DNA from: an uncultured Clostridia bacterium
GTDB taxonomy: Bacteria; Bacillota; Clostridia; TANB77; CAG-508
NCBI GenBank assembly: GCA_944386415.1
Contig: CALXAY010000001.1
Location: forward strand, 30,655 to 94,654
DNA length: 64,000 bases
Direction: 5' to 3'
Position numbers and translations under genes: made by a program. Below are positions 9,593 to 53,200 of this stretch, one piece after another. Below the pieces are notes generated by a model that saw nothing but the letters and a program-made list of their open reading frames with translations, was not told the origin of the DNA and ran no database searches. The number at the start of each line of letters is the position of its first letter. Position 1 is the stretch's first letter.

Positions 9593-9623
9593 GGGTTATT
9601 ACAATAAGTGTAATAGCCCTTTT
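9593..9623 (+). terminator. Rho-independent terminator after the ejection genes
   Basis: An 11-bp stem (GGGTTATTACA with TGTAATAGCCC, one G-U pair) is followed by TTTTAT. It separates the virion protein genes from the lysis cassette. Confidence 0.85.
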
Positions 9624-9646
9624 ATCTTTATTTAAAGGTGGGAAAT

Positions 9647-10273: not shown

Positions 10274-10287
10274 GAAGGAGGGATACT

Positions 10288-10485
10288 ATGAGTAATAAAG
10301 TATATGATGTTTTAAAATGGATAACACTTATATTTTTACCAGCATTAACAACTTTAGTTGGTGTTATACTGAACAGCTTTAATGTTGGTTGTACAGAAAT
10401 AGTCTTAACTATAATGACAGCAGTAACAACATTCTTAGGAGCTATACTTGGAATATCTAATATTAATTATAAAAACAAGGAGTGA
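10288..10485 (+). CDS. Phage holin (r1t-like, 65 aa)
   Basis: A short protein with two hydrophobic helices (about 10-28 and 36-56) separated by a turn, and a charged C-terminus. The opening MSNKVYDVLKWI and the segment TFLGAILGIS match the pattern of small holins of the lactococcal phage r1t family. It has the strong ribosome site GGAAGGAGG and is followed directly by the endolysin. Expected role: opening the cytoplasmic membrane so that endolysin can reach the wall. Confidence 0.85.
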   Translation: MSNKVYDVLKWITLIFLPALTTLVGVILNSFNVGCTEIVLTIMTAVTTFLGAILGISNINYKNKE

Positions 10486-10490
10486 TAATT

Positions 10491-11159
10491 ATGGCTACAA
10501 ATATACCATTAACAGGTGCATTTAGAGTAACATGTGAATACAAAAGAAAAGGAGACTGGGCTGCTGGTTGGCATACAGGAATTGATTTAGTTGGAGATGA
10601 TACAATTTACGGTACTTGTGATGGAACAGTAACAAAAATAGGTTGGGATAATAGTTATGGAAATTATATTACCGTTAAAGCTTCTGACGGGAAATATCAC
10701 TGGTTTTGTCATTTAAGTAAGGTAACTTGTAGTGAAGGAGATAAAATAAGCCGTACGACGAAAATAGGAGTTATGGGTAGTACAGGAAATTCAACAGATA
10801 AACATTTGCATTTCGAAATAAGAAATTCTAGTAATAAATACGCAGATAATTCAAACCCAGCAGGCTATATGGGAATACCAAATAAAGTTGGAAGTTATAA
10901 TACTCCTAATTATCAAATTGGAAACACAACGGCTTCTAGTAATTCAAATACAACAGGAGAACTAAAAACATTAAATCATAATACTAATTTAAGAAAAGCC
11001 CCTACAACATCTGCTGATATATTAAGTTTATACATACCAAATACAACATTATATGTTTTAGAACCTAGTGTAGCAGTAGCTGATGGATATACTTGGGATA
11101 AAGTAAAAATACGTGTAACTGGAGAAGAAGGTTATATGATAAATAAAAATTATAAATAA
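10491..11159 (+). CDS. Endolysin: M23 peptidase plus SH3-like domain (222 aa)
   Basis: The ATG at 10491 is chosen because AAGGAGTG lies just upstream. Residues 1-130 form a LytM/M23 zinc endopeptidase: H28 and D32 in WHTGID and the HLHFE motif provide the metal ligands, with a further His in WFCHLS. Residues about 155-222 resemble a bacterial SH3 domain (NLRKAPTTSADILS, YTWDKVKI), which would bind the cell wall. There is no signal peptide, consistent with release through the holin. The enzyme would cut peptidoglycan cross-bridges. Confidence 0.9.
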   Translation: MATNIPLTGAFRVTCEYKRKGDWAAGWHTGIDLVGDDTIYGTCDGTVTKIGWDNSYGNYITVKASDGKYHWFCHLSKVTCSEGDKISRTTKIGVMGSTGNSTDKHLHFEIRNSSNKYADNSNPAGYMGIPNKVGSYNTPNYQIGNTTASSNSNTTGELKTLNHNTNLRKAPTTSADILSLYIPNTTLYVLEPSVAVADGYTWDKVKIRVTGEEGYMINKNYK

Positions 11160-11174
11160 AATAGGAGGTAAAAT

Positions 11175-11537
11175 ATGTTAAAAGGTTTTGATGAAAATGG
11201 AAATATGCAAAATGTAAAAGTAAGTGAAAATGGAGAAGTGCTTGTAAAAACATCTGGAGAAACTAGTGAAAATCAAGAAGAAACGACATTGAACGCAAGT
11301 GTACAAACAGTTGGAACAACAGCTACTACAATTGCAATAAATAAAAAAGTAACACAAATAGATATAGCAAATTATAGCGAAGAAGCAAATATAACATTAA
11401 CCGCTGGTGGAGTTAGTGCAGTAATAGGAGCTAATATTGCAACTACAATTAAATTAAATAAACAAGTAGATAACATATCTCTAGTTTCTACAGTAGCAGA
11501 TACTAAAGTACAATTAGTTGTAAGTGGGGTGGAGTAA
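11175..11537 (+). CDS. Small phage protein of unknown function (120 aa)
   Basis: The ribosome site is AGGAGG. The first 30 residues (NVKVSENGEVLVK) resemble a short beta motif seen near the start of some phage minor structural proteins. The rest is rich in Thr, Val and Ala with alternating polarity, suggesting a beta-sandwich. It lies between the endolysin and a propeller protein, so it may be a virion surface or tail-associated component. This is inference; no family is recognised. Confidence 0.6.
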   Translation: MLKGFDENGNMQNVKVSENGEVLVKTSGETSENQEETTLNASVQTVGTTATTIAINKKVTQIDIANYSEEANITLTAGGVSAVIGANIATTIKLNKQVDNISLVSTVADTKVQLVVSGVE

Positions 11538-11538
11538 T

Positions 11539-12705
11539 ATGGCAATTAAATTTTTAAATAAAGGAAATAGCAAAAGTATCCCAAATATCTTTATGCAAGA
11601 AATAGAACCTTCTATTAAAAATGGTATATGGCTTAAGAGTTCACAAACATTTAATAATTTAATAATCACTGATAAACTGTCTAGTGCCCCAGTATTTACA
11701 AATATATATAGTGTTGAAAATTTACCAGAAAATGCTACATATAGTAATACACGTTTATTTAAATATAATGGAAATATTTATATAGCTCAAAATAACTTTT
11801 TAGGTATATTAAATTTAGAAGATATGACTGTTACACAAGTATATAATACCTTACCTTTTACTATACATGAATCAGACTATTATACAAATATAGTAGTAGT
11901 TGGTAATGACATTTTTGTAGGAAAAATTTTTTCAAATAAAATTATAAAATATAACTTGGAAGAAAACACAGTTGAAGATTTTATTACATTACCAAACTCC
12001 GGTAGACAATTTACATTGTCTTATTATAACGGAAATCTATATGTAATAGTCTACTATAATTTTAGCTTTTTTTATAAAATAAATATATCTCAGAAGATAG
12101 TAACAAGTCTAGCTTATCCAGACAATAATGACAATTACCTAAACGGTACTAATAGTGTTGTAGCAGGCAATAAAATGTATATGTTTTCAGGTGTATCAGC
12201 AAATGAGAAAGCATTTTGCTTTGATTTAGATACAGAAATATATGAAAACTTACCAGACATAGCTATAGAAGATTATGGCTTTAATAGACTATACTATGGT
12301 ACAGTTTTATATTATAATAATGTTTGTTACATATTAGGTGGAAGTGAAGGAATAAATGGTATTATAACTTATAACATACAAACTAAAACATACGGTGTAA
12401 TATCTTCTACAGGATATTCAAACCAAATGGGTATATTTGTAGATAATATTGCATACATATTTGAAAGCAAAAAAGTTTCTTTATTAGAAATACCATTCTT
12501 GAATTTTAAAGAAAAAAGTATCATTTTAGATATTAGCCAAAATACATATACAACTAAATTAGTAGAATATGATACAACTAATATTACTGGCGATATTACA
12601 TTTAAATTTAATGATGCTAATTATAATGATGCAAGTAATAAATTAATACAAACATTACCAACTTACTATGGTAATGGAACAGAATGGATTAAATTTAAAA
12701 ATTAA
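11539..12705 (+). CDS. Kelch-like beta-propeller protein, probable receptor-binding or tail protein (388 aa)
   Basis: The ATG at 11539 follows GGGGTGGAG. About six repeats of 45-55 residues run from about 70 to 320, each with a YNGNIYI- or VVAGNKMYM-like strand pair and a [FY][ND]L-type turn; this is the pattern of a Kelch-type propeller. The final 60 residues are a separate beta-rich domain. It is the last late gene before a terminator and lies next to lysis genes, a common place for host-recognition proteins. A receptor-binding role is inferred, not shown. Confidence 0.6.
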   Translation: MAIKFLNKGNSKSIPNIFMQEIEPSIKNGIWLKSSQTFNNLIITDKLSSAPVFTNIYSVENLPENATYSNTRLFKYNGNIYIAQNNFLGILNLEDMTVTQVYNTLPFTIHESDYYTNIVVVGNDIFVGKIFSNKIIKYNLEENTVEDFITLPNSGRQFTLSYYNGNLYVIVYYNFSFFYKINISQKIVTSLAYPDNNDNYLNGTNSVVAGNKMYMFSGVSANEKAFCFDLDTEIYENLPDIAIEDYGFNRLYYGTVLYYNNVCYILGGSEGINGIITYNIQTKTYGVISSTGYSNQMGIFVDNIAYIFESKKVSLLEIPFLNFKEKSIILDISQNTYTTKLVEYDTTNITGDITFKFNDANYNDASNKLIQTLPTYYGNGTEWIKFKN

Positions 12706-12749
12706 TTATAACTATATGGTGGAAGAAGTATATATAAAATAATAAGCAT

Positions 12750-12779
12750 AGTAGCTAGAATTATATCTAGCTGCTTTTT
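12750..12779 (+). terminator. Terminator at the end of the late operon
   Basis: AGTAGCTAGA pairs with TCTAGCTGCT (10 bp, one wobble) around a 6-nt loop, followed by a T run. It ends transcription after the propeller gene. Confidence 0.85.
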
Positions 12780-12791
12780 CTTCGACAGTTT

Positions 12792-12819
12792 TCGACACAA
12801 TATTTTTATAAAATATGAT
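12792..12819 (+). promoter_or_regulatory. Possible promoter for the 57-aa gene
   Basis: TCGACA and TATGAT are separated by 16 bases and lie 27 bases upstream of the ATG of the small gene that follows, just after the late terminator. The -35 match is imperfect. Confidence 0.45.
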
Positions 12820-12845
12820 ACAATTGTTGAAAGGAGATGATAAAT

Positions 12846-13019
12846 ATGACAATTCAAGAAGCTTATTTAAAATCTCTTCAGAAAATAAAAGAAGAAAAAA
12901 TTAAAGACATAAAGGAGTACACAAAGTTAGCAAAAAAAGAAAATCTTTTAAATGCAACATCACTAGAATATATTTCTAGGAAAGACTTCAATAACTTAAT
13001 AAAAAACCAGGATATTTAG
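12846..13019 (+). CDS. Small helical protein of unknown function (57 aa)
   Basis: The second ATG (12846) is preferred because AAAGGAG sits 9 bases upstream; the first ATG at 12837 abuts it. The protein is Lys/Glu-rich and probably all helical (QKIKEEKIKDIKEY). It has its own candidate promoter and shares a bidirectional terminator with the opposing membrane genes, which suggests expression in the lysogen. No function is recognised. Confidence 0.55.
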   Translation: MTIQEAYLKSLQKIKEEKIKDIKEYTKLAKKENLLNATSLEYISRKDFNNLIKNQDI

Positions 13020-13032
13020 TCCTGGTTATTTT
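13005..13032. terminator. Bidirectional terminator between converging genes
   Basis: AACCAGGA and TCCTGGTT form an 8-bp stem. A run of A precedes it and ATTTTTATT follows, so it can act on both strands. The stop codon of the plus-strand gene lies in the loop. Confidence 0.8.
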
Positions 13033-13258
13033 TATTATTATATTTCTTTTCTAAATAATCTTCTGCTATAATATGTGAATATACAGATATTGCAATTGAA
13101 ATAGAACATAATATATAACCTAAAATGCTATTGAAACTTTCATAGAAGAATATAAAAGTAATTCCCCAAACAAAAAAAGTATTAATAGCAAAAATGTATG
13201 GAAAAATCTTTTTTAAAAGTTTAGTCAAAAATTCATATATATTATTACTTCTATTCAT
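13016..13258 (-). CDS. Small membrane protein (80 aa), candidate conversion gene
   Basis: Two hydrophobic helices (about 17-37 and 43-62) with a charged C-terminus (EKKYNNKNN). It lies 2 bases downstream of the DUF805-like gene and is probably cotranscribed with it, against the direction of nearly all phage genes. That arrangement is typical of genes expressed from the prophage. No family is recognised; superinfection exclusion is only a possibility. Confidence 0.6.
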   Translation of the reverse strand: MNRSNNIYEFLTKLLKKIFPYIFAINTFFVWGITFIFFYESFNSILGYILCSISIAISVYSHIIAEDYLEKKYNNKNNQD

Positions 13259-13260
13259 AA

Positions 13261-13647
13261 TTATTCTTCCTCCTTAATTAGATTTGTTGTAGGAGGTCTT
13301 TGGGTTGGTAATAATAGCAATATTAGTAAAACTATATATACGATATAATTAAAAGCAGGAATACCAAAAATAAATAAAACATACACAAATAAAAAATATG
13401 GACTTATATTTGCGTCACGTAATCTTTTAATTTGCATGATAATATTTAATACTAAAAATGAAAAATATAGAAAATCTTGATACCTATCTATGTAGAATCC
13501 ATAACTGTACATATTTTGAATTACTATACCTAAAAGAAGTAATAATAACAAAATTAATAGTGATACTCCAAAAAATATCCAATAATTCTTTCTTGAACAA
13601 TATTTTGATTCAAATAAATTTGTTATTTTATTTAATACTTTATCCAT
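13261..13647 (-). CDS. DUF805-like membrane protein (128 aa), candidate conversion gene
   Basis: The N-terminal segment (YCSRKNYWIFFGVSLL) and the IKRLRDANISPYFL loop fit the DUF805 family pattern (R-x-x-YW near the first helix and an RL-x-D motif between helices). Four hydrophobic segments are visible. The start follows AGGAGATG on the minus strand. As part of a two-gene minus-strand unit in a lysogeny region it may act on the host envelope, for example in exclusion of other phages; that is inference. Confidence 0.65.
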   Translation of the reverse strand: MDKVLNKITNLFESKYCSRKNYWIFFGVSLLILLLLLLLGIVIQNMYSYGFYIDRYQDFLYFSFLVLNIIMQIKRLRDANISPYFLFVYVLFIFGIPAFNYIVYIVLLILLLLPTQRPPTTNLIKEEE

Positions 13648-13761
13648 TGTAACATCTCCTAATATTTTCTTTAGTTTATTTTTTTTATTATATCATTATG
13701 AATTATAAATTTCTATATTTTTTGATATTTTTAGATATTTTTTATGAAACATTGATAATCA

Positions 13762-13790
13762 TTTACAAAAATCCTTTTTTTTGTTATAAT
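13762..13790 (+). promoter_or_regulatory. Promoter for the HTH+AbrB-like regulator
   Basis: TTTACA and a perfect TATAAT are separated by 17 bases, 41 bases upstream of the ATG at 13832. Just upstream (13715-13745) are three copies of an ATATTTTT-like motif that could serve as operators for this gene or for the divergent membrane genes. Confidence 0.7.
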
Positions 13791-13831
13791 ATATTAAATT
13801 TAATGTTTTATATAAAATAGAGGTAACAAAA

Positions 13832-14146
13832 ATGGAAAAGGAAAAATTAAAGGAAGAATGTATAAAACTATTTCTTAGTGGAAAAAGTTACACAGAGATA
13901 GCAAAACTGACCAACTATTCGAGGCAACATGTATCAAATTTAATAAAAAATGATAAAAGAATAAAAGAAAAGTTAAATAATAAAACTGTTAAAGTCTATA
14001 AATTAAAAAATAGATCCAGAATGAATATACCAATAAATGCGGAATTTTTAAGAAAAATAGGTGTTAGTAAGAATTGTGAAAAGGAAGATTTTGTTGAAGT
14101 TCATTTAGACGAAAAAAATAAAATAATAACAATAAAAAAATTGTAA
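13832..14146 (+). CDS. HTH plus AbrB-like DNA-binding regulator (104 aa)
   Basis: Residues about 1-45 form a helix-turn-helix of the resolvase/Hin type (LFLSGKSYTEIAKLTNYSRQ). Residues about 58-104 have the short beta pattern of an AbrB/MazE-type swapped hairpin (RMNIPINAEFLRKIGV then DFVEVHLDEKNKIITIKKL). The two-domain architecture suggests a dimeric transcription factor. It has a strong promoter and lies between divergent membrane genes and the integrase, so control of lysogeny or of int is plausible. The AbrB assignment is by pattern. Confidence 0.6.
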   Translation: MEKEKLKEECIKLFLSGKSYTEIAKLTNYSRQHVSNLIKNDKRIKEKLNNKTVKVYKLKNRSRMNIPINAEFLRKIGVSKNCEKEDFVEVHLDEKNKIITIKKL

Positions 14147-14193
14147 AATGTGTAAGAAATAATATATTTACTTACATATTTTTTTACCCTCAC

Positions 14194-14222
14194 TTGCATT
14201 TGCACTGTGCTTATGTTATTAT
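14194..14222 (+). promoter_or_regulatory. Integrase promoter
   Basis: TTGCAT and TATTAT are spaced by 17 bases; the ATG follows 22 bases after the -10, with GGGGGTG as ribosome site. Confidence 0.6.
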
Positions 14223-14243
14223 GTAAAGTATGGGGGTGAAAAA

Positions 14244-15239
14244 ATGAAATTAAATTATTTTGAAATACCAGAAATACTAAAAAATTTTTTAAATTATTTA
14301 TTAGGTATAAAAGGATATTCAATAAATACTGCAGAAGCTTATTGCGGAGATTTACTTATGTTTTTTCACTTTATAAACGAATATCTTAACTTTAATATTT
14401 CTATAATGAAATTTAATGCTTTAATATTATTTCAAGTAAAAAAAAGTGATGTTATAGCTTTTTTAGTTCATTGTGGCTTTTCAAAAGATAATTCTGCTAA
14501 TACAAGGCAACGTAAACTTGCAGCTATAAGAACATTTTATTGTTGGCTAATTACTACGACTCCAGGAGGTTATAATCAAGAAAACCCAACAAGAGAAATA
14601 CCTAATATAGAAAAGATAGAAAAAATACCTAGACATCTGTCATTAGATCAAGCTAAAAAGATTCAAGAAATATTTACAATAAAAAATTCAAGATTTCCTA
14701 TAAGAAACAATGCAATAATCTCTACTTTTCTATCAACTGGTGCAAGAGCTTCTGAATTAATAAATGCAAATTTAAAAGATGTAAATTTAAAAAATAATAC
14801 ATTAACCGTAATAGGAAAAGGAAATAATGAAAGAATATTATATCTAAATAAGACTTGTAAAGAAAAATTAAATAAATATATCGAGCAAAGAAATAGAAAT
14901 AAAAAAGTAATTAGTCTTAATGAACCATTATTCTTAAATAAAAACGGCTCTAGGATTGGTATAGATTGCGTAGAGAATATTTGTGAAAAAGCTTTTGAAC
15001 TCATGGGACTTAGTAATTGTGGATATACAACACATACATTAAGACATACAGCAGCAAGCATGATATATATATACGTAACACAAAATATTTTAGTATTAAA
15101 AGAATTTTTAGGTCATAAAAGTGTTGCAACAACACAAATATATACTCATATTTATAACGAACATATAAAGGAAGCTGTGGATAAAAATCCATTAAATAAT
15201 TTTGAAAAAACTGCAAATAGGGAAGAGGAGGTAGCGTAA
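14244..15239 (+). CDS. int: Tyrosine recombinase, phage integrase (331 aa)
   Basis: The N-terminal SAM-like core-binding domain (residues about 8-110, GYSINTAEAYCGDLLMF) resembles XerC/D-type proteins and lacks the extra arm-binding domain of lambda-type integrases. The catalytic domain has R168 (STGARASEL), H264-x-x-R267-H268 (HTLRHT), H291 in LGHKS and the nucleophile Y300. All key residues are present, so it should be active. It lies 510 bases from the att junction, with one small gene between. It would integrate and excise the phage at the site by rho. Confidence 0.95.
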   Translation: MKLNYFEIPEILKNFLNYLLGIKGYSINTAEAYCGDLLMFFHFINEYLNFNISIMKFNALILFQVKKSDVIAFLVHCGFSKDNSANTRQRKLAAIRTFYCWLITTTPGGYNQENPTREIPNIEKIEKIPRHLSLDQAKKIQEIFTIKNSRFPIRNNAIISTFLSTGARASELINANLKDVNLKNNTLTVIGKGNNERILYLNKTCKEKLNKYIEQRNRNKKVISLNEPLFLNKNGSRIGIDCVENICEKAFELMGLSNCGYTTHTLRHTAASMIYIYVTQNILVLKEFLGHKSVATTQIYTHIYNEHIKEAVDKNPLNNFEKTANREEEVA

Positions 15240-15240
15240 A

Positions 15241-15516
15241 TTGAACAAGTTGGATTTTGATATAAATTCTATTAAAAAAAATAAAATAGAATTATTAAAT
15301 TGTCAAGTAGATTTAATTTTAAGAAGTTTAGAATTTTATTCATATACATATAATTATATTTATCCAAGACGAGGAAAATCTGAAACTTTAGAAGAAAATT
15401 TAAGAAAAAATTTAGTTCGTGATACTTATCATCAAATTACTAGTCAATTACATATTAACGAACATATTTACGATGATTATAATAAGTTTAAAAAAGATTT
15501 TGAAAAAGTTGCGTAA
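15241..15516 (+). CDS. Small protein between integrase and att site (91 aa)
   Basis: Translation starts at TTG, directly behind the integrase stop, with the strong ribosome site GAGGAGGT. The protein is largely helical, with many Tyr, Asn and Lys residues and a basic patch (PRRGKSETLEENLRKNLVRD). No family is recognised. Its position between int and attP would suit a recombination directionality factor, but there is no sequence support for that. Confidence 0.6.
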   Translation: MNKLDFDINSIKKNKIELLNCQVDLILRSLEFYSYTYNYIYPRRGKSETLEENLRKNLVRDTYHQITSQLHINEHIYDDYNKFKKDFEKVA

Positions 15517-28763: not shown

Positions 28764-29084
28764 ATGATAAAGAAAAAATTACCTAAAGAAGTTAAGAAAT
28801 ACTATGAGAGAGAGCTACGTCAGTATTGGTCAAACAAGAATAAATTAAAATACATAGAGAAAATGAATACCAAAACAGCCTTATTTTTAACAGAGAGGAT
28901 ACACTGCATAGAAACAGTAATAAGTAGACTAGATGATTTTGAAAAAGAGGTATTTAATTTAATTTTTAGAGATAATATGAGTTGGCTATATTGCAAAAAT
29001 ATTAAAAATATCAGTAAAACAACTTATTATAACATCTTAAACAAGTGTATTTATATGCTTGCAGAAGAAACTGGAGAAATATAG
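28764..29084 (+). CDS. ArpU/sigma-like late regulator (106 aa)
   Basis: The C-terminal 50 residues contain a sigma-70 region 4-like HTH (FEKEVFNLIFRDNMSWLYCKNIKNISKTTYYNILNKCI), and the N-terminal part is a helical segment with an RIHCIE stretch. It is the last gene before the strong terminator that divides early from late genes, where ArpU/RinA-type activators of late transcription are usually found. It probably switches on the terminase and structural genes. Confidence 0.65.
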   Translation: MIKKKLPKEVKKYYERELRQYWSNKNKLKYIEKMNTKTALFLTERIHCIETVISRLDDFEKEVFNLIFRDNMSWLYCKNIKNISKTTYYNILNKCIYMLAEETGEI

Positions 29085-30059: not shown

Positions 30060-30101
30060 ATGGAGCAAGGAATTGAAAGAATAGATTTTAACAATTACTA
30101 A
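30060..30101 (+). CDS. 13-codon ORF with strong ribosome site
   Basis: AGGAGG lies 7 bases before an ATG that opens only MEQGIERIDFNNY. It may be a leader ORF, or the start of a gene cut off when the structured RNA region was inserted. Confidence 0.25.
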   Translation: MEQGIERIDFNNY

Positions 30102-30550
30102 CTATGTCTATATAGTTAAAGGATTATAAAATAAATTGTGTAGTGGTGGAATAGACATATCTAGTTTGATATTAGATATGGTAAAACTAAACGGCTTTAT
30201 CTTAGACATAATTAGATTTTGCTGAATAGTAATAGTAGACACTCTTAAAACCAACCCCATTTGTGACATTGTGGGCTCATTCAAGGAAAGCTGTTGTTGG
30301 TTATCTGAAGGCTTTCATATAAGGTGCAAATCCTTATCTACACAGGCTACTAGACTGGAACTGCACTGCTAGTAGGCGAAAAGCGAAAGCTGTTATAAGC
30401 CTGCGTATACTAGTTAGCAATAGCATTTCCAGATAATGATTAATATATACTAGGTAATATTAATAATAATTTTATTAAATTAGAATACTTATTTATTATC
30501 CTTTTTGTAGAATACATATTCCTATTCTCTTTCCTAGTGAGAGAATAATT
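30100..30550 (+). ncRNA. Large structured RNA candidate with two pseudoknots and a tRNA-like domain
   Basis: There is no gene in this stretch. Visible pairings: TGTGTAG (30137-30143) with CTACACA (30338-30344); hairpin CATATCTA/TAGATATG (30156-30180); AACCAAC (30249) with GTTGGTT (30296), enclosing CCCAT/GTGGG; a T-arm-like hairpin TAAGG-TGCAAAT-CCTTA (30320-30336); CAGGCT (30343) with AGCCTG (30398); CTACTAG/CTAGTAG (30347-30375), whose loop CTGGAA (30355) pairs with TTCCAG (30427); TATTCTCT/AGAGAATA (30523-30547), whose loop CCTAGT (30533) pairs with ACTAGG (30449). The density of such pairings, with a tRNA-like element downstream, recalls large ornate phage RNAs of the ROOL or GOLLD type. 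Membership is not shown. The ends are approximate. Confidence 0.6.
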
Positions 30551-30554
30551 ATAC

Positions 30555-30629
30555 GTTTGTTTAGTTTATATAGTAAAACAACAGTCTCCAAAACTGTAAA
30601 AGGTAGTGCAAGTCTATCAACATTCGCCA
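30555..30629 (+). tRNA. tRNA-Trp-like element, anticodon CCA, with encoded CCA end
   Basis: The layout fits a 75-nt tRNA. The D-stem is GTTT/AAAC with an 8-nt loop that lacks the usual GG. The anticodon stem ACAGT/ACTGT holds the loop CTCCAAA, so the anticodon is CCA. The variable region has 4 nt, and the T-stem GGTAG/CTATC has the loop TGCAAGT. The 3' strand AACATTC is followed by G and an encoded CCA. The 5' acceptor strand GTTTGTT gives 5 of 7 pairs (T-T at 2-71 and 3-70). It is either a diverged phage tRNA or a tRNA mimic. Confidence 0.5.
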
Positions 30630-43058: not shown

Positions 43059-44495
43059 ATGCCTAACACTTTTCTAAATACAGGAAGAACTGCAACTGTA
43101 AGAGCTACAAGTAATCCGCAAGCAAATGTACAACAAGTACAACCTACAAATGCTCAAGCAGCTCAAACTCAAGTTAATCCTGTTCAATCTGTACAAAATA
43201 ATAATACAGCACAACCAAGTACTAATAATCAAACTCAAAGTAATAATTCTATTAATCCTATTACAATACCTATTCAAATACAACCAACAGTAGCAACTCA
43301 AAATACACAACCTCAAACGCAGTCAGTACAGCCACAACAGAATTTACAAGTACAACAAAGAAGTAATGTGGCTCCTACACCTCAAACTTATCAAGCACCT
43401 CAATACAATAATAATGTAATAGATTTTAACCAAATCTATTCTAGTTATCAAAGTGCTTATGGAAATAATAATTATACTACAAACATAGGAGCAAGTGGAA
43501 TAAAGAAAACAAGCATAGGAACCACTATTGTAACACCAACCACGGCTAATATGAATAGTGTTGAAGGTATGTATCAAAGTGCATATTCTAACACTATAAA
43601 TAGTTTAATATCAGAAATGATAACACAATTAGAAAACGGATTTCAATATGATCCTACACAAGATGGAGCTTTAAGAGTGGCTAGTGAATATGCTGCTAAT
43701 ACAACAATGCAAAGTTTAGCAGGAAGTGGTGTTTTAAATAGTTCTTCTACTGCTGAAAGAGTTGCAAGAGTTGTAAGTGAATTAGTTCCACAATATGAAC
43801 AATTAGCATATACAAGATGGACTGATTATATAGGTCAATTGTCAGATACAGCACAATTAGTTATGAATTATGACGCACAACAATTTGAGTATTGGAAGGA
43901 CGCAAAAGATAGAGAGTTCCAAAATAAACAATTTGAATATCAAAAACAACAAGACGCACTAGAAAATGCATGGAAACGTGTAGATGAATTAGGTTATGTT
44001 GATAATAATGCAAGTGCTATTTTGGGAGTTCCAGTAGGTACTTTATCAGGAGAAGCAAGACTTGCTAAGGAGCAACAAGAATTTGAATTGGCTAAAATGA
44101 GAGAACAAGCACAAATTGAATATGAGAACAATAAAGCATTATATCAATTAAAAGCAGAGTTAGATAAAGACCAAGCTAAATATGCTTATGAATTAGAGAA
44201 AGCATATGGTGGGAGTTCTACTTCAAGAAGTTCAAGTAATACAACAAGTTTAAGTACATATCAAGACATTATTAATAATAGATGGGCTAATTACGATGAA
44301 TTTAGCAGAAAATATACAGTAGATGATAATGTTGGACTATATAACTATTTAGTTTCTGAATATTATGCAGGAAGATTATCCTCATCTGACTTAGCAAACC
44401 TAACAGCTATGTATAATGTAACTCAACCAACAGACGCGGAAATAGCTCAAGAAGAGAGACGAAAATATCTTGACAGTTTAGAACAATATATGTAG
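43059..44495 (+). CDS. Internal virion protein with Gln/Asn-rich N-terminus and coiled coil (478 aa)
   Basis: Residues 1-125 are a Gln/Asn/Pro/Thr-rich disordered region. The middle (about 165-290) is helical, with SVEGMYQSAYSNTINSLI and AQQFEYWKDAKDREF. Residues about 330-375 are a charged coiled coil, followed by a Ser/Thr linker and a C-terminal helical domain. It is the first of three internal/ejection proteins. Its 3' part is repeated at 1-444. Confidence 0.65.
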   Translation: MPNTFLNTGRTATVRATSNPQANVQQVQPTNAQAAQTQVNPVQSVQNNNTAQPSTNNQTQSNNSINPITIPIQIQPTVATQNTQPQTQSVQPQQNLQVQQRSNVAPTPQTYQAPQYNNNVIDFNQIYSSYQSAYGNNNYTTNIGASGIKKTSIGTTIVTPTTANMNSVEGMYQSAYSNTINSLISEMITQLENGFQYDPTQDGALRVASEYAANTTMQSLAGSGVLNSSSTAERVARVVSELVPQYEQLAYTRWTDYIGQLSDTAQLVMNYDAQQFEYWKDAKDREFQNKQFEYQKQQDALENAWKRVDELGYVDNNASAILGVPVGTLSGEARLAKEQQEFELAKMREQAQIEYENNKALYQLKAELDKDQAKYAYELEKAYGGSSTSRSSSNTTSLSTYQDIINNRWANYDEFSRKYTVDDNVGLYNYLVSEYYAGRLSSSDLANLTAMYNVTQPTDAEIAQEERRKYLDSLEQYM

Positions 44496-44506
44496 GAGGT
44501 GGAATA

Positions 44507-47242
44507 ATGCCACAAGATGAAGAAGAAAAGAAAAAAAGAGAAGAAGAAGCAAGAGCAATAATTTCAAGTAATAGTATAGGGAGTTCAATAAATTCAATTA
44601 ATTATGCTAATATGAGAGGAACTCCATTAACCAGTAAAAATGACAATGAACAATATTTTATAAATAAAGTAAATGAAGCAAACAGTATAATTAATTCAAT
44701 TAATCCAAGACAGAATGTTCCAGCACCTTCTACTACTGATGAAGAACGAGAGCAAGGACATAAAAATGTGCAATCACTTTTAGATTTAATGGATAGAAAT
44801 ATAGAGCCAGAAATAGAAAAAACAAGTAATGTTCAACAAGAAGAAAATAATCCAAATGCTAATCATAGATTTAGAATAAATGGAACAAAATCTAAAGAAG
44901 AAATAGATAAGCAAGTACAACAAGCAAGTTCTTTAAATGTGCAACCAAATACTAATAACACTAATAATGTTAAAAGCATTACAGACCGTGATATAAAAGT
45001 AGGTCTAGCTTCACAAGCAGATACACAGAATGCAAAAGAATTAACAAATACTAACATTAATGCTATGACCGAAGCAAATAGAAAAAACGAAAATATAGAA
45101 AAAGGTGGACTTTCTAAATTTGAAGAAATGTTAGATACATTTTTTGATAATATAATTGGAGGAGTAAAACAAACTGTATCAGGTTTAGCAAATGTTGTTA
45201 CTACTGGTGCAGCTTTAGGCATAAGAGGGTTAGAAGGTGCAGCAGGAATATTAGGACTAGAAAATGCAAGAAATTCATTAAATGAAGCTTATAACTCAAT
45301 AGTTAAAACAGGAAGTAATATTAATGAAATAGCTAACTATGAAAGAACAGTAAACAGTCAAATAGATGATGATTTAACAAAAACTGTTGGAGATGTAACA
45401 AATGTAATTTCTAATATGGTTTCATCACAAGTTATAGGATATGCAATTCCAAGCAGTGTACCTGGTGTTGTAATACAAGGTTTATCTGTAGGTGGAAATT
45501 CTGCTCAAGAAGTACTAGATGAAAATAAAGATAATATTGGACAAGCAACATTAACTGGTATTGCAAAAGGTTATACATCTTATTTAACAGAGAAAATGTT
45601 TGACGCTAACATACTTACTATGGGAACTAATAAAACCAGTATTCAAAAATCAGTTGATAAGTTAATATCAGATAGATTAAGCTCAAAATTAGGTAAAGAA
45701 GTAGCTAATAAAACAGTAGGAATAATAGGAGAAAACGCAGAAGAGTTGGTAGAGGACAATGTTGATAATTTAATAGATAAGCTTATTAACAATAAAGATT
45801 TACCAGGATTTAAAGAATGGTGGAATAATACAACAGAAACTGCTAAGGTCACTACTTTATCAACATTGATAATGAGTATGGTAGGATTAGGTGGAGAAAG
45901 TTTTCACAATAAAGAAATTGATATGGAAGCAGATTATTGGATAGATCAAGCTCAACAAATAATAGAACAAGAAGATATGGCAATACATTTTAATCCTAGT
46001 GAAGTTAAAACTTTAAACGACACTAAAGACTTCTATATAACAAGATTTACACAAGATGGAGAGATTGCTAATGTAGTTCCAACAAGAGGGAAAACAATAG
46101 CAAATCCTAATGAAAACTTAAATATAAAGCCTGCAATAGTAAGAGATAATATAACTAACTTTTATACTGTTATAGATGAAGATACTGGAATTGTATTAGA
46201 TAGTACACCATATAATACAACAATAGAAGCTGAAAGTGGTTTTAATGAAAAAGTAAATAAATTATCTGATTTACAAGTAAGAGATATTAACCAAAAGATA
46301 AGTAAAGCAAATTACGCAGTTACTAATGAATTTACTAGAGTTATTAATGAAGCTAAAAACGAATTATCTCAAATGACACCAACAGATTATGGAATAAATA
46401 CAAGACAAAATACACAACAAAATCAAGAGAAGGAAAGACAAAATTTTGAAAATATAAACAAAACAATTAACCAAATATCAGATAAAAGTGTTTATAACCA
46501 GACAGCAGTTGATAATTTATTAACAACCGTAAGTAATAATATGGATAATATTGAATATGTTCCAGAAGATAATAGCGGTGGAGTATTATATTCTTTTGAC
46601 AATGACAGAAATATAACAGGGCAACAAAATATAAATAGCAAAGTTTATACAGGTAAGAAAATAAAAAGTATAGTAAATACAGCTATACAAAATGCTGATA
46701 CAACAAATCTATATCAAGAAACGAATATAGATAGCACCCAGACGTCCTCAGAGCCAAATTCAAGCAATTTCTATACTAATCAAGGTAATAACTATACTAA
46801 TGATACTGGATATGCTGTACAAGATATTAAGAGAGTAACAAAGCCTTTTGATAATCAAGAAAGTTATTCAAGAGATGATATGGTAGATATATGGAATAAC
46901 CAAGTATCTAACAACAACTATGACGCATATTATGATAACAATGGTAACATAGAAAGATACATTGCTATTGAAGAAGAAGGTAAAAATATTGTTGTAAATC
47001 AATACGATAATAACGACAATGTAGTAAAAAGTGAGGTTATATCAAACGAGAATGGAAGATATAAAGCTAGTGATATACAAGATACCCTTAATAGAGTTGC
47101 AAGCCTATATGACGAAAATAGACCAATAAAAGGACAAAGAGATATAGAAGGCAACGAAGTTTTGAGCATGAAGAAAAATAATAAAAATAAAGATACTACC
47201 TTAGCGTTACCTAAAAATCAAGGTGTTGCTAATTCACGGTAG
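44507..47242 (+). CDS. Large internal/ejection protein, second copy (911 aa)
   Basis: Identical to 456-3191. Here the whole late operon upstream is present, so it follows the complete internal virion protein gene by 11 bases. It has the hydrophobic Gly/Ala stretches that could reach the host membrane. Confidence 0.65.
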   Translation: MPQDEEEKKKREEEARAIISSNSIGSSINSINYANMRGTPLTSKNDNEQYFINKVNEANSIINSINPRQNVPAPSTTDEEREQGHKNVQSLLDLMDRNIEPEIEKTSNVQQEENNPNANHRFRINGTKSKEEIDKQVQQASSLNVQPNTNNTNNVKSITDRDIKVGLASQADTQNAKELTNTNINAMTEANRKNENIEKGGLSKFEEMLDTFFDNIIGGVKQTVSGLANVVTTGAALGIRGLEGAAGILGLENARNSLNEAYNSIVKTGSNINEIANYERTVNSQIDDDLTKTVGDVTNVISNMVSSQVIGYAIPSSVPGVVIQGLSVGGNSAQEVLDENKDNIGQATLTGIAKGYTSYLTEKMFDANILTMGTNKTSIQKSVDKLISDRLSSKLGKEVANKTVGIIGENAEELVEDNVDNLIDKLINNKDLPGFKEWWNNTTETAKVTTLSTLIMSMVGLGGESFHNKEIDMEADYWIDQAQQIIEQEDMAIHFNPSEVKTLNDTKDFYITRFTQDGEIANVVPTRGKTIANPNENLNIKPAIVRDNITNFYTVIDEDTGIVLDSTPYNTTIEAESGFNEKVNKLSDLQVRDINQKISKANYAVTNEFTRVINEAKNELSQMTPTDYGINTRQNTQQNQEKERQNFENINKTINQISDKSVYNQTAVDNLLTTVSNNMDNIEYVPEDNSGGVLYSFDNDRNITGQQNINSKVYTGKKIKSIVNTAIQNADTTNLYQETNIDSTQTSSEPNSSNFYTNQGNNYTNDTGYAVQDIKRVTKPFDNQESYSRDDMVDIWNNQVSNNNYDAYYDNNGNIERYIAIEEEGKNIVVNQYDNNDNVVKSEVISNENGRYKASDIQDTLNRVASLYDENRPIKGQRDIEGNEVLSMKKNNKNKDTTLALPKNQGVANSR

Positions 47243-50200
47243 TACCTCTAATAACAATATATCACAAAGTAGAGACATTATCAAATCTATTGAAAAGTTT
47301 GAAAAGGCTAAAAATAATATAGATAGAGAAACAGTTGTAAATATTGCTAATAGTTTAGATATAAAGATTAAAGAAGGAGCTACTAAAATTGAAAATACAA
47401 ATATGTCTAAACTAGCAGGTAAGAACAAAACTCCTAATATTATAACTATTGATGAATTATTCAAAGATTTAACTAGTAAAAATATTAAGGAATATAGAAA
47501 AGAAGCTGAAAGCATTGCTAATAATCTTTATAGAGATAAACTAGTAAAAATATTTGATACACAAACAGAAACAGAAATAAATAAAAGTGGTATTGAAAAA
47601 ACTCTTTCTGGAAACATTACTAAAAGTAAAATTCAAAGCATTAATAAATTACAAGATATTATTGAACAAGGAATTTATGGTTATACTACATATAATCCAG
47701 ATGACAATAATGGAATACTTTATCATCATTTCTTCACACCAGTAAATTATCAAAATAAAAATGGATTAATTAGAGTAGTTATAAGAGAATTTACTAATGA
47801 TAATTCATTAAATGATAAATATTATTATCATCAACTTGAATTTATTAGCAATAAAAAAATAGAAGGTATTAACGCCTTACCCCAAATTAATGGAAATAAG
47901 GAAATTAAGTTTTTACCTTCTACTAAGAATAGTATACCACAAAATAATCAAAGTGTCAAAAATAAAACAAAACAGACCCAAACACAAAAGGCAATAAACT
48001 CTTTAGAAGATATAAAGACAAAATACAAGAGTCAAACAGACCAATTAAATATATTTGAAAATGAAGATAATACTATAAGTATTAATAATTTAGTTGTAAA
48101 ACAAAATTTAAGAAATAAAGGAATTGGTCAAAATATTCTTAATGATATTATTGATTATGCTGATAAGAATGGTAAAACAATAACTTTAACACCTACCAGC
48201 CAATATCTTACAAAAAATAGATTAACAAATTGGTATAAGAAAAATGGTTTTGTAGAAAATAAAGGTAGAAATACAGATTATTCTATTAGTGATACTATGT
48301 ATAGGCTTCCTAAAAATAATACTCAAAATAACAAAAACATCAAAGACAACAGTGTCAGAGCTATGAGAAAAAATACTTCAAGAAGTGATACAGTAGTTGA
48401 CAATCATGGTAGAACTTTAACTAAGCAGCAACAAGAATATTTCAAGGATAGTAAGGTTAGAGATGAAAACGGAAATTTACAAGTTGTATATCATGGTATT
48501 AACGATTTTGGTTTTACAGAATTTAAAAGAAACTTTAATTATTATACAAGTAGAGAAGATGTTGCTAATACCTATACTGGAAATAACGGAATATATAGAG
48601 GTTACATAAACATAACAAATCCAATAATAATAGACGCAAATAAAGAAAAATGGTCTATGATAGATATTGACAATATTAAAATTAATGGAATTAACGATAT
48701 AAGAAAGTTCCTAAATCAACAAGGAGCTTCTATATGGCAAGAAAATGGAAAGACAAGAACATCTACAGCAGATTTAGTCCAAGCAATATCAGACGCAATA
48801 GATGAAGGTGAAATAACCGCTGACGGAATTATTATACAAAATATCTATGATGAAGGAAGTTATAATAGTGGAGAAGCAAAACTAGGTACAGATTATATAA
48901 CATTTAAAAGTAATCAATTCAAAAATTTAGATAATTCTTCTCCTACTTCTAATAATGATATAAGGTATATGAAAAAGAGTAATTCAAGAAATAGAACAAA
49001 TACAACTAATAATTCTAAAAAATTAATAGCTCAACATAATACATCAGAAGAAAAATTAATGGAAGCATTAGACTTAGGAGCTTTACCAGTACCAAGTATA
49101 GCTATAACAAAATCAGACACACCTATTTCTAATTATGGAGATATTACATTACTATTCAACAAAGACACAATAAATCCAACAGACAGAAGAAATGTAGCTT
49201 ATAATAGTGATATTTACTCTACAAGAAGACCACAAACAGTAAACAGCTTAGATAAGAATAAGGTTAAAACCTTCGAAAAGTCTATGAATGATAAAGGTAT
49301 AAGTTATGGTTATATAAGTCAGATTGAAGAATACATACAAGATAATGATTTTACAAGAGCTAAAGATACAATAAGATATGAACTACAAAAAGCTAATCCA
49401 GATATTACAGAGCAAGAAATAGAAGATAGCTTTACAGAAGCAATAGAAACTATTAAAGATAAACGTATATTAAGAGAAGATGTTGACCCATATACTCCTA
49501 GTGGCAACAGGAAAAGTATTGAACAAATGTCAGTTCCATATACACTAGATAATATTGTTAGATTAATGACTAAAAAATCTAATAAAGGAGCTGAAAGTAA
49601 TAACTTTGCAGGTCTTCCAGAAGTAAGAGCAAATCTTTCACAACAATTCAAAAATGTTGAAGAAATGCACCAACAGGAAAACAATCTTGTTTCAACAGAA
49701 GAAATGCAAAAGGTAAAAGAACAACTAAATGATGAATTTTACAACTTAATAGACGAAATAGGAAAATATGATAAGGTTGAGAGATATTTTGGTAGTGCTG
49801 ATACAGTTGCTAATGCACTAAATGAAACAGCAAAATCTAAAAATATTTCAAAAGAAGTACTAGAAAATGAACTTGATTTTGTTTCAATAACAAATGTTCC
49901 AGACAAAACACTTCAAAAAGCAATTGATTTTTTGAATAGTTTAAAGAATGTTCCTACTGAATACTTTGAAGTAAAGCCACAAAGAGCGGTTGGTTTAAAT
50001 GAAATTCAAAGTGCCATTGTACCAAAAAATACTTCTAAAGAACTTATAGACAAATTAAAAGAAAATAACATTCCTATTACTTATTACGATACTCAACAAG
50101 AAAGAAATAAAATAATTGCAAATGAGACAGAAAATAAAAATATACGTTTTGCTAAGAAAACAGCTAAGACACCTAAAGTAGAGGGAGAAATACTAGAGCC

Positions 50201-53200
50201 AGGACAAACAAATGCACAAAGAGAAAGTAATTACATAGAGCAAGAAATAAGAAAAATAGAAGAAAGTGGTAATTGGGACGACAGTATTCCTGTAACAAGA
50301 ATGACTGATATAAGAAAAACGATTGAAGATTATCTAGGTATTGGAGTTCAAAAAGGACGTTTTAGACAACAGGCTTATGGTATTTATAAAGGAAATAGAG
50401 ATGTAATAAGAACTAAAGAACTTAAAGACATTGATACAATCTTGCATGAGACCGGACATGCTTTAGACATTGGAAAAAGAATAAAACTGGATAAAGAAAG
50501 TATCTCAAATGAACTTCTAAAAGCAGTAAATAGATATGGTGGATATGAAGCTGAAACAAGAGAAGTACAACTTGAAGAAGGTTTTGCAGAAGTAATAAGA
50601 GAATATACTATTGTACCTAATCAAGCTAAAATTGATTATCCTCAAACTGTTGAGATATTAGAAGGTATAAGACAAACAGATAAAGATTTTAATAAATTTA
50701 TTACCGATGTACAACAGCAAACATACAATTACATACATCAAAATCCAGAAAATAGAGTTTTAAGTAACCAAAGCATAGGAGAAAGGACAGATAAACCTAA
50801 GTGGTCAAAAGAATATATACAGCAAGAAGTAATGAGAAATATCTATGATAAAGATATTTCAATTAAATATGCAGTAAATGAAATGCAAAAGGTAAATGGT
50901 AAATCTACAAACGATTTAAAAGCGAGTGAAAACGCATATTATTTAACAAGACTTTCTAGTGGTATTGGAGATAAAGTTGTATCTATGCTATCTAAAGGCT
51001 ATATAGATGAAAATGGAAATAAATTAATGCCAGGGCTAGAACAACTAGGAGAAATACTTGGAAATAGTGAGAAAAGATTTAATGACTTAAGAGCTTATCT
51101 AGTAGCACAAAGGGATTTAGAGTATAAAGCTAAAACATTAAAGACAGGTATAAGAACAATGGATAGTAAAGCTGTTGTAGAGCAATTTAAGAATGATAAA
51201 CAAATACAAGAAGCAGCTAAAATTGTATATGATACTCTAGATGGTGTTATGCAATATGCAGTAAATAACGGATTAATAGACCAAGAAACAGCAAATAGCT
51301 TACGAGAAAGCAATGCTTTCTATGTACCTATGCAAAGGGTTTTAGAAGGCAACAAAAACAATGTAGGTAGAAGGGGAGCAGTAGCAGATATTATAAAAGC
51401 TAGAACTGGAAGTGAACTTGATGTAAAAGATGTTTTAGAAAATATTGTTGCAAATTGTGCTAACATAATTCAACAAGTAGAAAATAATAACATTTTAAAA
51501 GCACTATATAATCAAGGAGAACAAGTTGGTATGACCGGTAAAATTTACGATGTTATAGACGCACCTATGATAAAAATAGGAACTGCTAAATTAAGTACTT
51601 GGGAAAGAGAATTAAGAAATCAAGGGGTTGACACAACTGAATTAAACCTAGAAAAAACAATTGATTTATTTGCACCCAATAACAAAGTAGATACAAATAA
51701 TCTTATTACAAGTTTTATAAATACAAATGGAAAAAGAATATATTTACAATTTAATGATGAAGTATTGTTCAATTCTTTAATGAATATGGATAAAAAGTTT
51801 ATGAGTACTGTTTTAAATATAAATAGGAAATTAAATATGCCTTTAAGATATGGTGCTACAATGGCTAATATTGGTTTTGCAATTCCAAATATGATATCAG
51901 ATACAGCACAAGCAACAATATTTAGTGAAGCTGGCTTTATTCCAGTAGTAGATAATGTAATTGGAATAATGGATATTTTATCAGTTCAAAATAAATCTGC
52001 CAGAAATTTCTTTAATAAAGTTGTTCCTGGATATGCAAATAGAATAAATACTTTATATGCTATATATGAACAAACAGGAGCTACAAGTGCAACAAGAATG
52101 AGTCAATATAGAGAAAAAACTCAAGCACTTATGAAAGATGTTTATGGTACAAAAAATAGTGAAGTTCTAGGAATAAAAGAGAAATTTAAACCTTTAAAAA
52201 GACTTTTAGATATAATGACATATATTCCAGAATTATCTGAACAAAGTACAAGATTTAGAGTTTTTGAAAAAAACTTAGACTTATATAGAAGTAAAGGTAT
52301 GTCAGAAACAGACGCAAGAATACAAGCAGCCTTACAGAGTAGAGACGCGACACAAGATTTTGGAAGAACTGGTAATGTTACAAGAGAGATAAATCAATTA
52401 ATACCTTTCTCTGCTGCTAGAGTTGGAAGTGCTTATACATTTGCAGAAAAAGTAAAAGCTAACCCTAAACGTGTTGCAAGTAGAATGGCTATATTAATTG
52501 CAATATCTACAGCCATAAAAGCAATAGGTTATGATGACGATGAAATAGAAGAATTAAATCAAAGAAAGAAAGATGATAACTTTGTGCTAAAAGTCGGCGA
52601 CCAAATTATAACTATTAAGAAGCCACAAGGAATACTTAGAAGTATTATAAACCTAGGAGAATATGTACAAGACTTATTTACAGGACATATTGAAGAAGGT
52701 AAAGAAGGAGAAAGACTAACTGAATGGGTTACTAATGCAATAATGGATAATATGCCAGCAGACAGTGTAACAGGTTTAGTTCCTAATATGATAGCTCCTG
52801 TAGTTGAAAATGCGATTAATAAAGACTTGTATTATAACTCTGATATAGTAAAGAGTTATGATTTAGAATTACCAGATAATGAACAATATTATGATTATAA
52901 TTCTCAACTTGCAATATGGCTAGGACAGATATTTAATTATTCTCCTGCTAAGATAGATAATTTAATAAGTGGATATTTGGGAGGACTTGGAACATCTGTA
53001 ACAAATGTTATTGACTGGATAGCTGGTAAAACTGGAATAACAGTAGAACAACCAAATATGGGAGCAGAAGATAGTGCAGTTGGAAAAAGATTTTTTGTAA
53101 ACGTAAACTCTAACAGCCAGAGTGTTGACGACGTTTACACACTAAAAACAGACTTAACAAAAAAACAGAATGGTGGTACAATAACAGAGGAAGAAGAAAA

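What the first reader, a model, noticed from the sequence alone, without database searches (positions are those of the whole stretch)
30100..30550. Undescribed-looking ornate RNA between early and late phage genes
About 550 gene-free bases hold at least seven helices, two of them with loop bases that pair with distant sequence (CTGGAA with TTCCAG, CCTAGT with ACTAGG). A tRNA-like closing domain is present: a 7-bp acceptor-like helix 30137/30344, a D-arm-like start (TGGTGGAATAGACAT) and a T-arm with a TGCAAAT loop, but with about 135 extra bases where a tRNA has its variable loop. TATGTCTA at 30103-30110 can pair with either 30152 or 30203, hinting at a switch. A tRNA-Trp-like element follows. 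Large RNAs such as ROOL and GOLLD occupy similar places beside tRNAs in phages (established knowledge); that this is one of them, or a new class, is inference.
Basis: partly seen in the sequence, partly recalled or inferred. Interest (0 to 1): 0.85.

Follow-up and report, generated by a model that had tools for sequence, protein, structure and literature searches.

The report
Phage tRNA-like RNA with swappable core
This unannotated phage RNA keeps the outer frame of a leucine tRNA but has a structured core where the anticodon arm should be, and closely related phages carry unrelated cores in the same frame, as if it were a holder for exchangeable RNA parts.

Summary
Window 30137-30344 has a 7-bp acceptor helix, a tRNA-Leu-like D arm and a 6-bp T stem with a TGCAAAT loop. 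It has no anticodon arm: there is an 80-nt insert in the D loop (30155-30234) and a pseudoknotted core (30243-30318). I hold 113 distinct elements (80-327 nt); frame pairs covary strongly. In 56 element-bearing loci scanned, no Rfam 15 family covers the element. Fifteen fetched records of cultured phages pass the full-frame script; phi3T, P70 and P100 carry variants. The striking property is modular exchange. Near-identical loci keep frame and flanks but hold unrelated cores (Clostridia, Listeria and SPbeta-like phages), and D inserts and cores recombine independently. In L152 the D-insert site holds an endonuclease gene inside an otherwise complete frame. It fails tested defining features of tRNA, tmRNA, ROOL and Y RNA. 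Best reading: a trans-acting phage RNA using a tRNA frame as a holder for exchangeable effector cores, probably in phage-host conflict. Architecture and swapping are shown; expression and function are inferred.

The parts
30082..30136 (+). Upstream block shared with relatives that have different interiors; holds an inverted repeat (AACTATGTCTATATAGTT) and a promoter-like site 30088-30116
   Evidence: 84-91% identity to L003, L004/L174, L005, L032/L042; weaker or shorter to L041 and L084; promoter-like sites are no more frequent than in shuffles, so promoter function is inference
30137..30143 (+). Acceptor helix, 5' strand (TGTGTAG), pairs with 30338-30344
   Evidence: 7 of 7 pairs; 6 of 7 pairs of this helix show double changes in 41 relatives
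30144..30154 (+). tRNA-Leu-like D arm, 5' part (TGGTGGAATAG); D stem 30146-30148 with 30240-30242
   Evidence: alignment A1; 2 of 3 D-stem pairs with double changes; the name tRNA-Leu-like is recalled from the D-arm sequence and fits the tRNA-Leu annotations
30155..30234 (+). D-loop insert of 80 nt: helix A 30156-30163/30173-30180, linker, helix B 30186-30195/30221-30230 (8 of 10 pairs); precise insertion between GGAATAG and GTAGAC
   Evidence: present or absent at the same site in relatives, e.g. L209 has it and L195 lacks it with an identical centre; helix A: 23 of 29 distinct inserts have at least 5 consecutive pairs against 16% between different inserts; in L152 the same site holds a PD-(D/E)XK endonuclease gene
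30235..30242 (+). D arm, 3' part (GTAGACAC)
   Evidence: alignment A1
30243..30318 (+). Exchangeable core of 76 nt with an H-type pseudoknot: stem 1 30249-30255/30296-30302, stem 2 30286-30291/30311-30316
   Evidence: eight-member core family; stem 1 has double changes in 4 of 7 pairs, stem 2 only G-C/G-U changes in one pair
30319..30337 (+). T arm with 6-bp stem and loop TGCAAAT
   Evidence: 6 of 6 pairs; 5 of 6 pairs with double changes; a TGYRAAT loop in 23 of 23 elements found from the D side alone
30338..30344 (+). Acceptor helix, 3' strand (CTACACA); no CCA follows
30555..30629 (+). Neighbouring tRNA-Trp (CCA); not part of the element
   Evidence: ARAGORN, Rfam RF00005 45.7 bits

Best explanation
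The element is a structured phage RNA descended from a tRNA-Leu gene. Acceptor helix, D arm and T arm are kept as a rigid frame; the anticodon and variable arms are replaced by an exchangeable structured core (in the window a pseudoknot), and some members also carry an insert in the D loop. I propose that it works as a natural 'tRNA scaffold': the tRNA-like frame gives defined ends and resistance to nucleases, and the core is the effector that binds a host or rival-phage target. Different targets would select for different cores, so phages swap cores by recombination in the constant frame. Shown here: the frame, its covariation, the pseudoknot of the window's core family, and core and insert swapping at fixed loci. 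Inferred: transcription as a separate RNA, processing by tRNA enzymes, trans action, and a role in phage-host conflict. The D insert may be a homing-type insertion rather than an effector.
For: Frame and covariation; the same frame recovered when only the D side was used as bait: of 32 de-duplicated sites with a continuing D loop, 23 have the acceptor partner and a hairpin arm, all 23 with a 6-bp stem and a TGYRAAT loop. Core swap at fixed loci: L002 v L180, upstream 140/150, frame 18/18 and 26/26, downstream 149/149 aligned bases identical, interiors 142 and 110 nt with 62 of 85 aligned; Listeria vB_LmoS_188 v FHC193-PLM9, flanks 141/149 and 140/150, interiors not alignable; L038 v L077, downstream 146/149 and upstream 105/135, cores unrelated. 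A further swap in Spbetavirus: BUCT082 v phi3T. Inserts and cores shuffle independently. The window core pseudoknot covaries; crossing helices reach p <= 0.05 in 22 of 71 cores and p <= 0.01 in 9 of 71. Mostly co-directional with neighbours: upstream 65 same, 11 opposite, 11 unclear of 87; downstream 64, 10, 13. A terminator-like hairpin with a T run follows the element in L002 and L180 (by eye). Precedents: an engineered tRNA scaffold in which the anticodon stem-loop becomes an insertion region (PMC3753655, passages) and a phage non-coding RNA mimicking the antitoxin ToxI to defeat abortive infection (PMC3475682, abstract).
Against: No transcript was seen in any tool result. In several loci a terminator-like hairpin with a T run lies just upstream of the element (L049, L060, L177, L185; by eye), so how the RNA is transcribed there is unclear; a -10-like hexamer close upstream is only weakly enriched among 88 upstream stretches. 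The folding energy of the window element is not exceptional (z = -1.05). The pseudoknot is not shown for most cores: 49 of 71 have p > 0.05. The D-loop site can be occupied by a 468-nt insert with an endonuclease gene (L152), so part of the variation is mobile-element traffic. No target was found and linked defence genes were not searched for. The element is absent from close relatives (vB_LmoS_293, SPR, Goe12), so it is dispensable.
Confidence: 0.48

Rival explanations
1. Cis-acting leader: the element is a structure of the late transcript that controls antitermination, processing or translation of the packaging genes; the core is free to vary because only the frame matters.
For: In the window it lies between a transcription-regulator-like gene (phrog_36, E = 5.7e-7) and the terminase genes (phrog_309, E = 3.7e-46; phrog_24361, E = 1.6e-17). 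H1-Guo, BtpYZU01 and FHC193-PLM9 show an annotated regulator or sigma factor before it (in H1-Guo a DUF1492 protein) and terminase genes after it. It is mostly co-directional with neighbours.
Against: Also found inside tRNA islands (EFDG1; between two tRNA-Arg in ATCC 8014-B2; P100), after the HU gene of SPbeta-like phages, and with a terminator-like hairpin after it (L002, L180). The window's core family keeps covarying pairs, which a free filler would not need.
Confidence: 0.2
2. Mobile or intron-like cargo: the D insert, and perhaps the core, are mobile elements or their remnants that home into a tRNA-Leu-like gene; the frame is mainly the target.
For: The D insert is precise and present/absent polymorphic. 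In L152 a PD-(D/E)XK endonuclease gene (PF11645, E = 8.8e-21) lies in a 468-nt D insert exactly between GGAATAG and GTAGACGC, with core, T arm and acceptor complete behind it; in L003 such a gene (E = 1.1e-13) lies between the D part and the rest of the T part.
Against: Only these two cases were seen, one of them in a scan of the held loci for genes in the D insert. No Rfam family matches. Members without a D insert still lack an anticodon arm, so excision would not give a tRNA. Acceptor and T stems keep covarying.
Confidence: 0.14
3. Punctuation or processing element: a tRNA mimic cut by RNase P/RNase Z to separate early and late transcripts or to trim tRNA-island precursors; cores are passive.
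For: tRNA-like acceptor/T stack; tRNA genes lie near many elements.
Against: Cores come in recurrent families shared between different frames and inserts; a passive spacer would not keep a covarying pseudoknot. RNase cleavage is not testable here.
Confidence: 0.12
4. Decaying tRNA-Leu genes of phages, no function.
For: tRNA-Leu ancestry of the D arm; no CCA, variable base after the acceptor (A 57, T 34, C 15, G 7 of 113); degenerate copies such as P70.
Against: Strong covariation of acceptor, D and T stems, a uniform 6-bp T stem and TGYRAAT loop in 23 of 23 finds from the D side, and recurrence across many phage genera.
Confidence: 0.05

Closest known systems
tRNA-Leu (RF00005 clan)
   Same: 7-bp acceptor helix, D arm sequence TGGYGGAA..GGTAGACGC, T arm with a 7-nt T-loop
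   Different: No anticodon arm, 6-bp rather than 5-bp T stem, G instead of U at T-loop position 2, no CCA and no fixed base after the acceptor; ARAGORN does not call it
tmRNA (RF00023)
   Same: tRNA-like ends plus pseudoknots; one element follows a phage tmRNA directly (EFDG1, L214)
   Different: No common tag reading frame seen: 11 of 113 elements have a frame open throughout; no tmRNA match over the element apart from one shared border base in EFDG1
ROOL (RF03087) and GOLLD
   Same: Large phage RNAs of unknown function, often near tRNA islands (PMC12286853, passages); ROOL is present in 5 of 58 scanned loci
   Different: Far longer (ROOL model 574 positions; many GOLLD members over 800 nt) and form RNA cages; no model match at the element
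Bacterial Y RNA (YrlA)
   Same: A non-coding RNA that mimics tRNA; proposed for abundant non-coding transcripts of the Listeria phage CKA15 (PMC12282133, passages)
   Different: No Rfam match; Ro (TROVE, PF05731) found in 0 of 30 genomes or records searched. That Rfam holds YrlA is recalled; the paper on bacterial Y RNA is not held
Engineered tRNA scaffold for recombinant RNA
   Same: Anticodon stem-loop replaced by a chosen structured RNA in a tRNA frame (PMC3753655, passages)
   Different: Man-made, from human tRNA-Lys; this would be a natural counterpart
Phage pseudo-ToxI RNA
   Same: Phage-coded non-coding RNA that mimics an RNA antitoxin and defeats a host defence (PMC3475682, abstract); ToxI is a pseudoknot (PMC5772629, search listing)
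   Different: Repeats without a tRNA frame; no sequence link tested here
Listeria sRNA rliG (RF02415)
   Same: Its match ends just before the element in vB_LmoS_188 (L218 1248-1395 v 1400-1529); part of prophage A118 (PMC3556495, passage)
   Different: Lies beside the element, not over it; A118 itself has no R1 match

Membership tests
tRNA | acceptor, D and T stems | tested here: met
tRNA | anticodon stem-loop and callable anticodon | tested here: not met
   ARAGORN calls no tRNA at the element in the window nor at the elements of L032-L060
tRNA | 5-bp T stem with U at position 55, discriminator and CCA end | tested here: not met
   6-bp stem and TGYRAAT in 23 of 23; no CCA, base after acceptor variable
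tmRNA | match to the tmRNA covariance model | tested here: not met
   the only contact is one shared border base in EFDG1
tmRNA | tag reading frame between the tRNA halves | tested here: inconclusive
   11 of 113 have a frame open throughout; short internal frames were not examined systematically
ROOL / GOLLD | match to their Rfam models | tested here: not met
   that Rfam holds a GOLLD model is recalled
Bacterial Y RNA | Rfam match and a Ro (TROVE) protein partner | tested here: not met
   no Rfam match; TROVE in 0 of 30 (control found it in 1 of 14 named genomes)
Group I intron | match to a group I intron model | tested here: not met
   (E up to 10); that Rfam holds such models is recalled
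Type III antitoxin RNA (ToxI-like) | binds and inhibits a ToxN-type endoribonuclease | not testable with these tools
   needs a bench assay; no Rfam match at the element
Trans-acting sRNA | discrete transcript with own ends | not tested
   no expression data held; terminator-like hairpin after L002/L180 by eye only

The most novel reading that the evidence does not exclude
A natural tRNA scaffold: a phage RNA family in which a tRNA-Leu-derived frame displays exchangeable RNA effector modules, traded between phages and aimed at different host defences (for instance as pseudoknot mimics of RNA antitoxins) or at rival phages; an RNA counterpart of modular anti-defence genes.
Probability: 0.35. 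Interest if true: 0.95.

Novelty: categorically new. Interest (0 to 1): 0.85.

Why it matters
If it holds, phages own a class of RNA gene that annotation has overlooked, in cultured phages (among them phi3T of Bacillus subtilis, Listeria B025, P100 and vB_LmoS_188, Enterococcus EFDG1, Lactobacillus phiJL-1) and in gut phages. It would be a natural tRNA scaffold, it would give a marker for finding RNA effectors (take whatever sits inside the frame), and it makes the role of the gene-free gap before the terminase genes directly testable in a laboratory phage. Unrelated cores swapped between near-identical loci are a pattern expected of genes in conflict and surprising for a structured RNA. The D-loop site with its precise inserts, one of them an endonuclease gene, may also be a new homing site.

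Tried and rejected
Rfam at gathering and at E <= 10 gave no family. BLAST of the 611-nt stretch against phages gave 4 weak records; one of them, H1-Guo, later proved to carry the element. The family appeared only after pattern searches on the T side and the D side. The pattern TATATAGTTAAAGGATT (9 stretches) and the insert pattern (1 stretch) gave hits without the element. Model R1 in 291 genomes of the class (82 with a match) returns, apart from the window's own copies, matches of 77-87 nt, the length of ordinary tRNA-Leu, and is no measure of prevalence. The T-arm pattern matched 10 of 391 and 23 of 398 genomes; among the fetched sites G000 and G435 carry the element, G440 (L276) one with a changed D arm by eye, and many others look to me like cobalamin riboswitches (my recognition, no model run). 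A promoter fixed at the acceptor start was tested and is not general. Y RNA tested through TROVE and rejected.

Rows dropped or missed: of 29 viral T-side hits 26 passed the full-frame script (L034, L035 and L044 failed it; by eye they hold the element with a mismatched acceptor, a contig end and a changed D arm); of 38 genome-contig hits 29 passed, L205 and L206 are partial by eye, and 7 (L175, L181, L184, L189, L193, L194, L210) show no element. Of the 32 sites, 9 gave no 3' half: two at contig ends (L095, L173), two that other scripts do find complete (L068, L149), five unresolved. For alignment A1, 41 of 62 short elements were kept (full acceptor, at most 160 nt, cores under 75% alike). 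In alignment A2 two of eight rows (L035, L296) are misaligned by one column in stem 1 and were counted as they stand. The script misses phi3T (one extra base between T stem and acceptor), P70 and P100 (changed T loop) and L152 (too long); these are by eye or by model. The 'ok' count had an off-by-one error and is not used.

Full report
What is in the window. Bases 30137-30344 form a tRNA-like RNA: acceptor 30137-30143/30338-30344, D stem 30146-30148/30240-30242, T stem 30319-30324/30332-30337 with the loop TGCAAAT. Between G154 and G235 of the D loop sits an 80-nt insert, and between the D arm and the T arm sits a 76-nt core instead of an anticodon arm. Rfam 15 finds only the neighbouring tRNA-Trp at gathering score (see for the weak IS128 match); ARAGORN finds only that tRNA. 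The element lies downstream of a transcription-regulator-like gene (28764-29084; phrog_36, E = 5.7e-7), a Peptidase_M78-like gene and a small ORF, and upstream of tRNA-Trp and the terminase genes (phrog_309, E = 3.7e-46; phrog_24361, E = 1.6e-17).

A large family. Related genomes share only parts of the stretch, which already showed a patchwork. A pattern for the T arm found 29 viral contigs; 26 of 29 pass a script that demands the full frame and the other three show it by eye. A like pattern in genome contigs gave 38 hits, 29 passing. A pattern for the D side alone, with nothing asked of the T side, led in 23 of 32 sites to the matching acceptor strand and a hairpin arm, each with a 6-bp stem and a TGYRAAT loop. 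In all I hold 113 distinct elements of 80-327 nt with 43 different acceptor 5' strands, every one with a continuing D loop. Fifteen fetched records of cultured phages pass the script: Listeria B025, vB_LmoS_188, B054, LP-HM00113468, FHC193-PLM9 and LP-101, Leuconostoc Ln-9, Enterococcus EFDG1, Weissella PWc, Lactiplantibacillus H1-Guo, Brochothrix BtpYZU01, Lactobacillus phiJL-1 and ATCC 8014-B2, Bacillus BUCT082 and KLEB27-1. None is annotated as an RNA there; small hypothetical ORFs overlap the element in B054 and KLEB27-1. phi3T carries a clear variant, P100 one found by the model (E = 3.7e-9, in its tRNA island), P70 a degenerate one; Paenibacillus SV21 looks like a reduced form.

Covariation. 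On 41 diverse short elements, 13 of 16 frame pairs show changes on both sides, with 126 such cells and a covariation score of 0.576 against 0.166 +/- 0.014 in shuffles and at most 0.129 when partners are slid. The rows were chosen to pair, so the percentage paired proves nothing, but the variety of pair types does. The model from these rows, which do not include the window, finds the window element at E = 3.5e-11.

The core. The window's core belongs to a family of eight. Its stem 1 crosses stem 2, and stem 1 has double changes in four of seven pairs; stem 2 is nearly invariant with only G-C/G-U changes in one pair. Over 71 non-redundant cores, a crossing pair of helices ending beside the T stem scores p <= 0.05 in 22 and p <= 0.01 in 9, against about 3.6 and 0.7 expected. 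So a pseudoknot is recurrent, but it is not shown for most cores. The usual D insert carries two hairpins; the first is supported by 23 of 29 distinct inserts with at least five consecutive pairs, against 16% when halves of different inserts are combined.

Modules are swapped. The same core occurs with different inserts or with none: the window core with insert (window, L208) and without (L038, L055); L046/L054/L177/L178/L198; L002/L037/L197; L209 with and L195 without. At fixed loci the flanks and frame stay while the interior changes: L002 v L180 (upstream 140/150, frame 18/18 and 26/26, downstream 149/149 aligned bases), vB_LmoS_188 v FHC193-PLM9 (141/149 and 140/150, frame 16/18 and 26/26), L038 v L077 (downstream 146/149, upstream 105/135, frame 18/18 and 20/26), and BUCT082 v phi3T. 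In vB_LmoS_293, SPR and Goe12 the place holds no element.

An endonuclease gene in the D loop. In L152 a complete PD-(D/E)XK gene (PF11645, E = 8.8e-21) lies in a 468-nt insert exactly between GGAATAG and GTAGACGC (its stop codon overlaps the first bases after the insert), and the core, T arm and acceptor strand follow intact. In L003 a related gene (E = 1.1e-13) lies between the D part and the last part of the T arm, the core being gone. So the D-loop site looks like a homing site, and the ordinary two-hairpin inserts may be gene-less relatives of such insertions. Whether any insert is removed from the RNA is unknown.

Context. In the window, H1-Guo, BtpYZU01 and FHC193-PLM9 it lies between a regulator-like or sigma-factor gene and the terminase genes. 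Elsewhere it lies in tRNA islands (EFDG1, P100) or after the HU gene of SPbeta-like phages. In EFDG1 it begins at the last base of a tmRNA match; in five of 58 scanned loci ROOL is on the same locus. Of those 58 loci, 56 hold a script-found element and no Rfam match covers it. In vB_LmoS_188 the match to the sRNA rliG ends at 1395, just before the element starts at 1400. It is mostly co-directional with its neighbours.

How it most likely works. A tRNA frame is stable, has defined ends and is compact; an engineered version with the anticodon stem-loop replaced is used to make recombinant RNA (PMC3753655, passages). Phages use non-coding RNA against host defence: pseudo-ToxI in phage PhiTE (PMC3475682, abstract). 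Unrelated cores exchanged inside a fixed frame fit an effector under changing selection. I therefore propose a trans-acting scaffold RNA with exchangeable effector cores. Frame, pseudoknot and swapping are shown; transcription, processing, trans action and target are inferred. The best rival is a cis-acting leader of the late operon; the endonuclease genes make a mobile-cargo reading of the D insert serious.

Known or not. It fails tested defining features of tRNA, tmRNA, ROOL, GOLLD, Y RNA and group I introns (see the membership test). Five searches of the held literature aimed at such an RNA gave no description of it in their listings; four more concerned related matters. The library covers open-licence PMC papers only. 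One paper reports very abundant unannotated non-coding transcripts near the tRNA genes of a P100-like Listeria phage and suggests Y RNAs (PMC12282133, passages); whether these are this element was not tested.

Noticed in passing
window 1-15500 and 44052-59550: The first 15 kb recur 44,051 bases later (identity 1.0 in 1-kb blocks up to 15,000, lost within the following two blocks); the contig holds two copies of the element. Either tandem prophages or an assembly that wraps round a circular 44-kb phage.
   Followed up: partly
L152 150-800 (+) and L003 1094-1489 (-): PD-(D/E)XK endonuclease genes (PF11645) inside the frame: in L152 exactly in the D-insert site of a complete element, in L003 replacing the core; L005 looks like a deletion remnant of the L003 form.
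   Followed up: partly
L132 9063-9210: An element-like frame whose core holds a nested tRNA-like gene (ARAGORN tRNA-??? at 9112-9182).
   Followed up: no
window 30345-30554: A second gene-free stretch that folds better than shuffles (z = -2.12) between the element and tRNA-Trp, with only short matches in the fetched loci.
   Followed up: partly
window 30082-30136: A 55-nt block, with an inverted repeat in most, recurs upstream of elements with unrelated interiors in six loci; possibly a shared promoter or operator.
   Followed up: partly
L212 2775-2825 and L224 2184-2234: Rfam mcrA RNA (RF03010) lies just downstream of the element in two Listeria phages.
   Followed up: no
window 30555-30629: The tRNA-Trp has a TGCAAGT T loop, also with G where tRNAs have U55 (sequence).
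   Followed up: no
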